Virus record (IMG/VR): IMGVR_UViG_3300032163_000073
Span: 1 to 30,524 of that record
Strand: one strand, 5' to 3'
From: a virus
DNA length: 30,524 nt
Shown here: piece by piece, positions 78 to 8,599 of the stretch
How positions within the stretch are numbered: the stretch's first letter is position 1
Layout: each line of letters opens with the position of its first letter
Program-made: the position numbers and the translations under genes
Notes under the pieces: generated by a model
Told to the model about the DNA's origin: nothing
Databases searched by the model: none
Seen by the model: the letters and a program-made list of their open reading frames with translations, nothing else

Positions 78-97
78 TTGTCTGTTGCAAATCAATC

Positions 98-126
98 TTG
101 CATAATTTTATACACTCAGTTATACT
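98..126 (+). promoter_or_regulatory. Sigma70 promoter with operator-like spacer
   Basis: -35 TTGCAT (98-103), 17-nt spacer, -10 TATACT (121-126). The spacer starts with an AT-rich half-palindrome ending in TTATAC. The promoter and leader (97-148) match 8580-8529 on the other strand at 48 of 52 positions, so this is one copy of a repeated regulatory module. Confidence 0.8.
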
Positions 127-163
127 CACTTCATCAAATCAAACAACGAACCGGAGAAATAAA

Positions 164-1498: not shown

Positions 1499-1621
1499 GC
1501 AACAGAGTTATTAAAACGCATTCAGCCACACATTAATGATTGGGATTTCCCAGTTGGTTTAACCGATGATGTTGATGCGTTCTTTTGGGTGGCGATTACT
1601 CGATTCTTGAAAGGAGTATAA
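1491..1621 (+). pseudogene. Frameshifted small phage gene
   Basis: The ATG at 1491 (overlapping the previous gene) opens a frame that stops after seven codons. The +1 frame then reads ATELLKRIQPHINDWDFPVG onward through FFWVAITRFLKGV to a stop at 1621, a convincing protein sequence. Restoring one A near 1497 would give MDKATELLKR in one frame. I therefore read one gene of about 43 aa with a one-base deletion in an A-run, either real or a sequencing error. Confidence 0.6.
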
Positions 1622-1670
1622 AAATCTCCCTACTGGTGGTAAATATTGTGTTTATACTAAGATATAGTGC

Positions 1671-1699
1671 TTGCACATTTTTATAAAATGTATTAATAT
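1671..1699 (+). promoter_or_regulatory. Sigma70 promoter of the non-coding region
   Basis: -35 TTGCAC (1671-1676), 17-nt spacer rich in A/T with TTTTTATAAAA, -10 TAATAT (1694-1699). Same layout as the other cassette promoters. Transcription would start near 1706, at the left edge of the structured RNA region, with no credible ORF for 900 nt. Confidence 0.7.
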
Positions 1700-2114
1700 T
1701 TACTTATTGAAGCAGACGACACAGTCCTATTTTTCTCCTGCGAATTTCAAAATCCACAATAATTTTCATAAGTAGGTACAGCTAGGTGGTTGTGTTGAGT
1801 AGTATGATCTAGCTGTGACTCATAGTGTATGGTCGTGTGGCGGCGATACTCATTGTGGAATGCCGGATTTGCTGGCCTAAGCAGCATTTAGTCATAAGCA
1901 TGTGTAGATGTGTTTATGACTAACTAGCTGGTTGGTGAAAGTGAAATAATTCAATGATATTTAAACGAATCCTTGTTTGGCTGCTTACAAGGTAAGTTTT
2001 GAAGATTAGCAATCTTCTCCTTATACAAAGTCTTGACAAGACGATAAGCCAAAAAGTCAGGGTGCTGGTTGTTGGGATCCAGCACCAACATAAATGATTA
2101 TTATTCATAGTGGT

Positions 2115-2167
2115 TATTTATGTTGGTTTATATATCATATTTATTCTAGGGAATATATGCAGGTTAA
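2115..2167 (+). repeat. 53-bp direct repeat, copy 1
   Basis: Matches 2565-2617 at 52 of 53 positions (difference at 2156/2606), exactly 450 bp apart. It includes a duplicate of the XRE gene's ribosome site and first codons (ATGCAGGTTAA), which here open a 13-codon dead-end frame. The left end forms an 11-bp inverted repeat with 2085-2095. Confidence 0.9.
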
Positions 2168-2411
2168 GCCCGTTGACGGTAGCCATACCGAGAGTTAGCG
2201 CACGATTACCACAAGCGGACACGTAAGGACGGTAAGTCGTGCAGTGGGAGGGTTGTTTAACCCTATACAGCTCGGAAAGACGAGCACCAACAATTTGAAT
2301 GATGACTGCGGGTTGAAATAATATCGCACAAATAGGGTTTGAATCTGAAGGTGACGGAAGCGGTTAGTCGTCTGTGTTGGTGTATATTATCTATGCAGTG
2401 CATAGATCAAC

Positions 2412-2487
2412 ACACAGGTAGCTTATATAGGTAAAGCGTGGGGACGTATAATCCTTGGTAAAGCTGGTTCGAGTCCGGCCCTGTGTG
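2412..2487 (+). tRNA. tRNA-like gene, atypical anticodon arm
   Basis: Cloverleaf elements: acceptor ACACAGG (2412-2418) with CCTGTGT (2480-2486), discriminator G2487; TA at 8-9; D stem GCTT/AAGC (2421-2424/2434-2437) with GG in the loop; T stem GCTGG/CCGGC (2463-2467/2475-2479) with loop TTCGAGT. The anticodon arm (2439-2457) is 19 nt instead of 17. It folds as six pairs with loop CGTATAA, giving TAT at the anticodon place but G where U33 should be. No CCA is encoded. It may be a degenerate or unusual tRNA (Ile-UAU by position), or a tRNA mimic within the large RNA. Confidence 0.6.
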
Positions 2488-7845: not shown

Positions 7846-8508
7846 TCAACGCCCCAAGAAACTTTTGATAATTTCGGCTTGCTTTGCCTTTGCTGCGTCC
7901 CGTGCTGCGGTCCATGCTGCGTTCCGTGCTGCGGTCCATGCTACGTCCCGTGCTTCGGTCCATGCTGCGTCCCGTGCTGCGTCCCGTGCTGCGTCCCGTG
8001 CTACGTCCCGTGCTACGGTCCATGCTGCGTTCCGTGCTACGTCCCGTGCTTCGGTCCATGCTGCGTCCCGTGCTGCGTCCCGTGCTGCGTCCCGTGCTAC
8101 GGCAAGCTCTTCCTCTGTCGCCTCACCATTCGCAAAGCGCTCTGCAACATCAAGTGCATTTAAACTGCTCGGGTCAGTTATTAAATACTGAACTTCACGC
8201 ACAAATTTAACCGCCATTAAACGAGCTACTTTGTCACATTTTTGTGTCGTTGCACATAGCGCCCACAAGCAGTCATCTACTCCGTTTGATTCAAGAATAT
8301 CAAGAATATTGATTTCTTCTTTGTGAGCAAATCGGATATAGCTACAACTATCGTTGTATTTTTCTGTAAATGGTAAGTTTTGCAGCGAGCGGACAACTTT
8401 GTTATATCCTTCGTAGCAAGCGCCAGCTTTGCGTAATTGTTTTAGCGTGGTGGTTAAAATAAATCGTTCTTGTTTTGCTGGGATGATTGCTTCGATTTGG
8501 CTAATCAT
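7846..8508 (-). CDS. Phage protein with Ala/Arg/Trp tetrapeptide repeats, 220 aa
   Basis: Residues 1-135 form a helical globular domain (MISQIEAIIPAKQERFIL, later NGVDDCLWALCATT). Residues about 138-205 are a run of four-residue repeats of the type A-R-D-A / A-W-T-A, a long Ala-rich charged helix. The end is KAKQAEIIKSFLGR. The repeat is encoded by 12-bp DNA units. Proteins with such AARDAA/AAWDAA repeats occur widely in phages and bacteria, without known function to me. It is the first gene of the minus operon and has a strong promoter at 8551-8579. Repeat number may vary between strains. Confidence 0.75.
   Translation of the reverse strand: MISQIEAIIPAKQERFILTTTLKQLRKAGACYEGYNKVVRSLQNLPFTEKYNDSCSYIRFAHKEEINILDILESNGVDDCLWALCATTQKCDKVARLMAVKFVREVQYLITDPSSLNALDVAERFANGEATEEELAVARDAARDAARDAAWTEARDVARNAAWTVARDVARDAARDAARDAAWTEARDVAWTAARNAAWTAARDAAKAKQAEIIKSFLGR
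7884..8105. repeat. 12-bp tandem repeat tract inside a gene
   Basis: About 18 units related to CGTGCTGCGTCC fill this stretch. A higher-order 96-bp copy is visible: 7941-8006 equals 8037-8102 nearly base for base. It encodes the Ala-rich helix of the minus-strand 220-aa protein, with the reading frame kept in every unit. Confidence 0.9.
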
Positions 8509-8550
8509 TTTGAAACTCCGTTACGTTGCGTTGTTTGATTTGATGTAGTG

Positions 8551-8579
8551 AGTATAGATAAGTGTATAAAATTATGCAA
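8551..8579 (-). promoter_or_regulatory. Promoter of the minus-strand lysis operon
   Basis: Read on -: TTGCAT (8579-8574), 17 nt, TATACT (8556-8551). The spacer begins with the same 14 bases as the promoter at 98-126, and the leader is also shared. It drives the 220-aa gene and probably the coupled genes down to 5651. Confidence 0.8.
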
Positions 8580-8599
8580 GCACTGTCTTTGCATTTAGT

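What the first reader, a model, noticed from the sequence alone, without database searches (positions are those of the whole stretch)
2412..2487. tRNA-like gene with a 19-nt anticodon arm lacking U33
Acceptor, D and T arms are near perfect, but the anticodon arm is two bases too long. It forms six pairs and a CGTATAA loop with G at the place of U33. This can be a decayed tRNA, a suppressor-like or frameshift tRNA, or a tRNA mimic that serves as a processing or aminoacylation handle for the large RNA.
Basis: seen in the sequence. Interest (0 to 1): 0.7.

Follow-up and report, generated by a model that had tools for sequence, protein, structure and literature searches.

The report
Phage tRNA mimic with unusable anticodon
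A phage carries a long structured RNA that ends in a piece shaped like a transfer RNA, and relatives keep the shape but not a normal anticodon loop, so it probably serves as a folding or processing module and not as a decoder of codons.

Summary
In detail: 2411-2488 is called tRNA-Ile(UAU) by ARAGORN and matches Rfam tRNA at 37.4 bits. The 19-nt arm with six pairs is there, but the sixth pair (T2439-G2457) is a window-only accident: relatives have G-G or no base there, and three have a normal 17-nt arm. G in place of U33 is not an accident: it is in 8 of 8 records (4 sequence variants), while the anticodon differs (TAT or TCT). Apart from that sixth pair, every stem change keeps pairing, including a double change at an eighth acceptor pair. 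It is the last module of a roughly 900-nt structured phage RNA (fold z -7.7). That RNA carries a hairpin (2267-2285, loop GAAAGA) shared by unrelated phages. Elsewhere this hairpin often lies a few bases before tRNA-like structures, mostly with a replaced anticodon domain: 13 of 108 contexts against 1 of 1646 control windows. Best reading: a non-decoding tRNA-like module for folding, processing or protection. Function is inferred. GOLLD and ROOL models did not match, without a positive control.

The parts
1620..2158 (+). 5' half of the large noncoding RNA; 1611-1922 conserved in relatives, 1923-2158 not
   Evidence: only one short minus-strand ORF of 62 aa at 1920-2108; 88.6% identity to L004-L006 over 1611-1922; fold z -7.7 for 1650-2570
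2159..2406 (+). conserved core of the large RNA
   Evidence: 94% identical to L004-L006 over 2159-2506; 2189-2292 is 90% identical to Iodobacter phage PhiPLPE, unannotated there
2267..2285 (+). hairpin ACAGCTCGGAAAGACGAGC: stem GCTCG/CGAGC, loop GAAAGA
   Evidence: exact 19-mer in at least 119 viral stretches; 128 contexts in 53 DNA-unrelated clusters; loop kept with other complementary stems
2286..2381 (+). domain closed by the helix ACCAACA (2286-2292) / TGTTGGT (2375-2381), directly after the hairpin
   Evidence: same position, with different but complementary sequences in PhiPLPE (L003), L067, L219 and Vibrio phages L011-L014, by eye; 8-nt exact helix after the hairpin in 19 of 53 cluster representatives against 94 of 1706 control positions
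2389..2407 (+). small hairpin ATCTATGC-AGT-GCATAGAT, three bases before the tRNA-like acceptor
   Evidence: sequence; identical in L005, L008 and L010
2411..2487 (+). tRNA-like domain: 8-bp acceptor, D arm, 5-bp anticodon stem with 7-nt loop and G33, T arm; no encoded CCA
   Evidence: ARAGORN, Rfam tRNA, four variants with pairing kept
2446..2446 (+). G at position 33
   Evidence: G in 8 of 8 records, 4 of 4 variants; a pattern with A, C or T here found 0 viral stretches
2115..2167 (+). upstream copy of a 53-nt direct repeat, other copy 2565-2617 over the start of the regulator gene; window-specific rearrangement
   Evidence: 98% identity; L004-L009 match the repeat only at the downstream place, apart from the last 9 bases that belong to the RNA core

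Best explanation
The element is a tRNA-derived, tRNA-folded module in the 3' part of a roughly 900-nt structured phage RNA. It no longer seems to need to decode: the U-turn base U33 is replaced by G and the anticodon drifts, while acceptor, D, anticodon and T stems are kept. Most likely it acts through its shape. Host tRNA-fold enzymes (RNase P first, possibly 3' processing enzymes) would recognise it and trim or cap the large RNA, and the compact fold would protect or organise that RNA. Shown here: fold, conservation of G33, change of anticodon, pairing-preserving changes, position within a larger structured region. Inferred: transcription as one RNA, recognition by RNase P, protection.
For: Eight records in four variants keep G33 although the anticodon is TAT in three variants and TCT in one. 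Window against L005: 7 substitutions and 4 inserted bases; the 5 substitutions in stems all keep pairing, among them C-G to A-U at the eighth acceptor pair; the other 2 are in the anticodon loop, one of them in the anticodon. Structure as drawn: 97.8% of cells paired, at most 48.9% when slid. The module sits in a highly structured conserved region. Elsewhere the shared hairpin leads tRNA-like structures, most of which lack a normal anticodon arm: 41 of 55 lack a strict one, against 27 of 116 ordinary tRNAs of the same loci.
Against: Only four variants; the shuffle control on pair changes is not significant (118 of 500). PhiPLPE has the core but ARAGORN finds no tRNA there, so the module is dispensable. 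G33 is tolerated in at least one working tRNA, that of Candida (PMC1991585, passages). No transcript data; promoter-like sites no more than chance (4 found, 4.4 expected). In the window the hairpin is 126 nt away from the module, not adjacent as in the other phages.
Confidence: 0.58

Rival explanations
1. A working tRNA with G33 that reads AUA (window) or AGA (relatives), helping phage translation.
For: All arms, G18G19 and T loop intact; AUA is used, 60 of 5176 codons in 23 chosen ORFs, AGA 31; Candida tRNA-Ser(CAG) has G33 and works (PMC1991585, passages).
Against: The anticodon changes between amino acids in near-identical RNAs; position 73 is paired and differs (G or T); CCA not encoded; a G33 tRNA was rated of medium and a U33 one of high decoding efficiency in the Candida work.
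Confidence: 0.17
2. A decaying tRNA gene carried as a passenger.
For: Four extra bases against L004-L006 and absence of U33; module absent from PhiPLPE.
Against: All stem changes among four variants keep pairing except the non-conserved sixth pair; the same G33 persists in all.
Confidence: 0.16
3. A decoy for host enzymes or tRNA-cutting defence nucleases.
For: tRNA fold with a cuttable but probably useless anticodon loop; phage tRNAs that evade such nucleases are known (recalled, not searched for here).
Against: No defence target identified; nothing tested.
Confidence: 0.07
4. A frameshift or suppressor tRNA made by the longer anticodon arm.
For: Arm is 19 nt in the window.
Against: Loop is 7 nt in all variants, sixth pair not conserved, relatives have 17 nt; the anticodon does not match a stop codon.
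Confidence: 0.02

Closest known systems
GOLLD RNA (with tRNAs in its linker) and ROOL RNA of phages
   Same: Large structured phage RNA of unknown function close to, or containing, tRNAs (PMC12286853, passages).
   Different: No match to RF02032 or RF03087 in 20 of 20 records (no control genome rang, so sensitivity is unproven). Here the tRNA-like part lacks U33.
Phage T4 stable RNAs rnaC (species 1) and rnaD (species 2)
   Same: Stable phage RNAs beside tRNAs (annotation); the 3' end of rnaC holds a perfect T arm (by eye).
   Different: 119-139 nt, no evident sequence relation; compared by eye only.
Candida tRNA-Ser(CAG) with G33
   Same: G at position 33 (PMC1991585, passages).
   Different: A working nuclear tRNA; here the anticodon drifts and the tRNA fold is part of a larger RNA.
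Proteo-phage-1 RNA (RF03044)
   Same: Lies about 100-180 nt upstream of the same hairpin in one group of contigs (L017, L028, L036).
   Different: No match in the window.

Membership tests
decoding tRNA | cloverleaf with G18G19, T loop and 5-bp T stem | tested here: met
decoding tRNA | U33 in a 7-nt anticodon loop | tested here: not met
   G33 in 8 of 8 records
decoding tRNA | conserved anticodon among close relatives | tested here: not met
   TAT in window and L007-L010; TCT in L004-L006
decoding tRNA | aminoacylation and ribosome binding | not testable with these tools
   needs experiment
GOLLD RNA | match to RF02032 | tested here: inconclusive
   0 of 20 records, but 0 of 14 controls rang
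ROOL RNA | match to RF03087 | tested here: inconclusive
   0 of 20 records, but 0 of 14 controls rang
tmRNA | match to ARAGORN's tmRNA model with tag peptide | tested here: not met
   ARAGORN, which also seeks tmRNA, reports only the tRNA
hairpin-led tRNA-like RNAs of phages (grouping made here) | hairpin with GAAAGA loop in the same region and strand | tested here: met
   2267-2285
hairpin-led tRNA-like RNAs of phages (grouping made here) | tRNA-like acceptor starting within 12 nt of that hairpin | tested here: not met
   126 nt apart in the window

The most novel reading that the evidence does not exclude
Tailed phages of several bacterial groups share an apparently undescribed kind of RNA: a hairpin with a fixed GAAAGA loop and a variable stem, then a tRNA-like structure with acceptor, D and T arms whose anticodon domain is replaced by other sequence of up to about 150 nt. 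These would be natural tRNA scaffolds, possibly chargeable by synthetases that ignore the anticodon (leucine type; base A73 in 42 of 55). The window's large RNA is a modular variant in which the tRNA-like end lost only U33.
Probability: 0.4. Interest if true: 0.8.

Novelty: new variant of a known kind. Interest (0 to 1): 0.58.

Why it matters
Large phage RNAs next to tRNAs have had no known function. A conserved tRNA-shaped end that probably cannot decode normally separates the structural role of the tRNA fold from its role in translation and makes it testable. The shared hairpin gives a handle for finding many more such RNAs, including in cultured phages (Vibrio phages, Bacteroides phage BS-TP2, Iodobacter phage PhiPLPE).

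Tried and rejected
Sequencing error: rejected, since the L004-L006 and L007-L009 variants each occur identically in three differently named assemblies. Known RNA family: Rfam gave only tRNA as a credible match for the window region and only tRNA and Proteo-phage-1 above cut-off in relatives. Plasmid search: only chance-level hits in traI. Codon usage: does not decide. A promoter for the large RNA: nothing above chance. A T arm inside the 2286-2381 domain: looked for by eye, not convincing in the window. Papers: searches for such phage tRNA-like RNAs and for the hairpin sequence (0 papers) listed nothing that describes this class by title or abstract; subscription papers are mostly not held, so this is weak. 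Three papers on GOLLD and large RNAs were not held.

Biases to know: searches used patterns that demand a leucine-like D arm or G33. The G33 count rests on the window and records already found by core patterns. The 55 structures mix loci (selected for the D arm) with others; the unselected test is. The strict arm test also fails 27 of 116 ordinary tRNAs; with one mismatch allowed 26 of 55 against 107 of 116 pass. Identical contexts were dropped before counting. The set of 128 contexts includes the window and loci. Of the 128, 45 form one group near Proteo-phage-1 without tRNA-like structure after the hairpin.

Full report
What is there. The window is a virus record of 30,524 bases with terminase, portal and tape-measure genes of a tailed phage. 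ARAGORN finds one gene, tRNA-Ile(tat), at 2411-2488; Rfam tRNA scores 37.4 bits over 2412-2487. Read from the sequence, all arms are present. The loop is CGTATAA with G2446 at position 33.

Relatives. Patterns from the core upstream of the element found seven other records: L004-L006 and L007-L010. L004-L006 are identical to each other over 1063 bases. ARAGORN calls tRNA-Arg(tct), 74 nt, in L004-L006 and tRNA-Ile(tat), 78 nt, in L007-L010. With the window there are four variants of the element. All 8 of 8 records have G at position 33. A pattern allowing A, C or T there found no viral contig, although that pattern still fixes the surrounding bases.

What is conserved. On the alignment of the four variants, 97.8% of 90 cells of the drawn structure are standard pairs, at most 48.9% when slid. 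The two failing cells are both the sixth anticodon pair (G-G in L008 and L010; a gap in L005). The other changes keep pairing: G-U to G-C in the anticodon stem, two pairs in the T stem, and a double change C-G to A-U at an eighth acceptor pair (C2411-G2487 in the window). Four variants are few, and the shuffle control does not separate (118 of 500 shuffles). Between window and L005 two changes fall in the 7-nt loop, one of them in the anticodon. The fold is thus kept while a normal U-turn and a constant anticodon are not. That is what one expects of a module used for its shape, not of a decoder, but the evidence is from few sequences.

Surroundings. The element ends a noncoding region of about 900 nt that folds far better than shuffles (z -7.7, 20 shuffles). 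Region 2159-2506 is 94% and 1611-1922 is 88.6% identical to L004-L006. Iodobacter phage PhiPLPE holds 2189-2292 at 90%, unannotated, and has no ARAGORN tRNA there. The region is therefore modular. A 53-nt direct repeat, whose upstream copy L004-L009 lack apart from the last 9 bases, shows a recent rearrangement in the window.

A shared hairpin. The core holds ACAGCTCGGAAAGACGAGC at 2267-2285. This 19-mer occurs in at least 119 stretches of viral contigs (stopped at its limit) and 32 stretches of genome contigs, many of Pseudomonas. The 128 contexts gathered fall into 53 groups without clear DNA similarity outside the hairpin. Elsewhere in the fetched loci, GGAAAGAC with other stems has four complementary flanking bases in 9 of 92 sites (0.4 expected; 0 in each of six scrambled control words), and 5 of these 9 are followed by a tRNA-like structure. 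It is thus an RNA hairpin with a fixed loop.

What follows the hairpin. In 13 of 108 non-redundant contexts a strict tRNA-like structure (7 of 7 acceptor pairs, 5 of 5 T-stem pairs) starts within 12 nt, against 1 of 1646 control windows. Pooling with a leucine-biased search gave 55 distinct structures, 44 of them at 5-6 nt, lengths 70-318, A73 in 42, CCA encoded in 4. A strict normal anticodon arm is found in 14 of 55, against 89 of 116 ARAGORN tRNAs of the same loci (26 of 55 against 107 of 116 with one mismatch; 3.2 expected in shuffled middles). Some are ordinary tRNAs, for example L020. Most have a replaced or enlarged middle, for example L102 and L046. In others, such as PhiPLPE, L067, L219 and the Vibrio phages, the hairpin is followed by a long closing helix around another domain, as in the window (8-nt helix in 19 of 53 representatives against 94 of 1706 control positions). 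The window differs from the adjacent type: its tRNA-like element is 126 nt further on, but it is itself preceded at three bases by a small hairpin (2389-2407).

Reading. I take the element to be a tRNA-derived module of a large phage RNA, kept for its fold. Processing by RNase P and protection of the RNA are inferences from the known behaviour of tRNA folds. A working tRNA with G33 remains possible: Candida tRNA-Ser(CAG) is a precedent, and there a G33 tRNA was rated of medium and a U33 tRNA of high decoding efficiency (PMC1991585, passages).

Known systems. Large phage RNAs near or containing tRNAs are known (GOLLD, ROOL; PMC12286853, passages; ICP1 discussion in PMC7567579, passages). Their Rfam models did not match in 20 of 20 records, but no control rang. 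T4 rnaC and rnaD are annotated stable RNAs beside tRNAs; rnaC ends in a T arm. I found no paper on the hairpin-led class in searches (listings read by title and abstract start); the library lacks most subscription papers.

Noticed in passing
viral contigs, e.g. L018, L046, L051, L102, L084, L137: Leucine-type tRNA-like structures directly after a GAAAGA-loop hairpin, with the anticodon domain replaced by other sequence; some phages carry more than one (L051, L102, L128).
   Followed up: partly
window 2115-2167 and 2565-2617: 53-nt direct repeat, 98% identical; both copies end in GCAGGTTAA, a word that is also native to the RNA core in relatives, suggesting recombination at a 9-nt shared word.
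   Followed up: partly
window 97-153 and 8524-8580: 57-nt inverted repeat, 89% complementary, 8.4 kb apart.
   Followed up: no
window 7867-8161: Array of 12-base tandem repeats (17 overlapping registers of a 103-nt reference).
   Followed up: no
L017, L028, L036: Rfam Proteo-phage-1 RNA about 100-180 nt upstream of the same hairpin; part of a group of 45 contexts.
   Followed up: no
L067, about 320 bases before to 420 bases after the hairpin: One RNA with several long helices capped by T arms, as if built of stretched tRNA-like units.
   Followed up: no
L131 (Bacteroides phage BS-TP2) 2500-2653: Hairpin plus tRNA-like structure in a 150-nt gap between a DUF2303 gene and ninG, unannotated.
   Followed up: no
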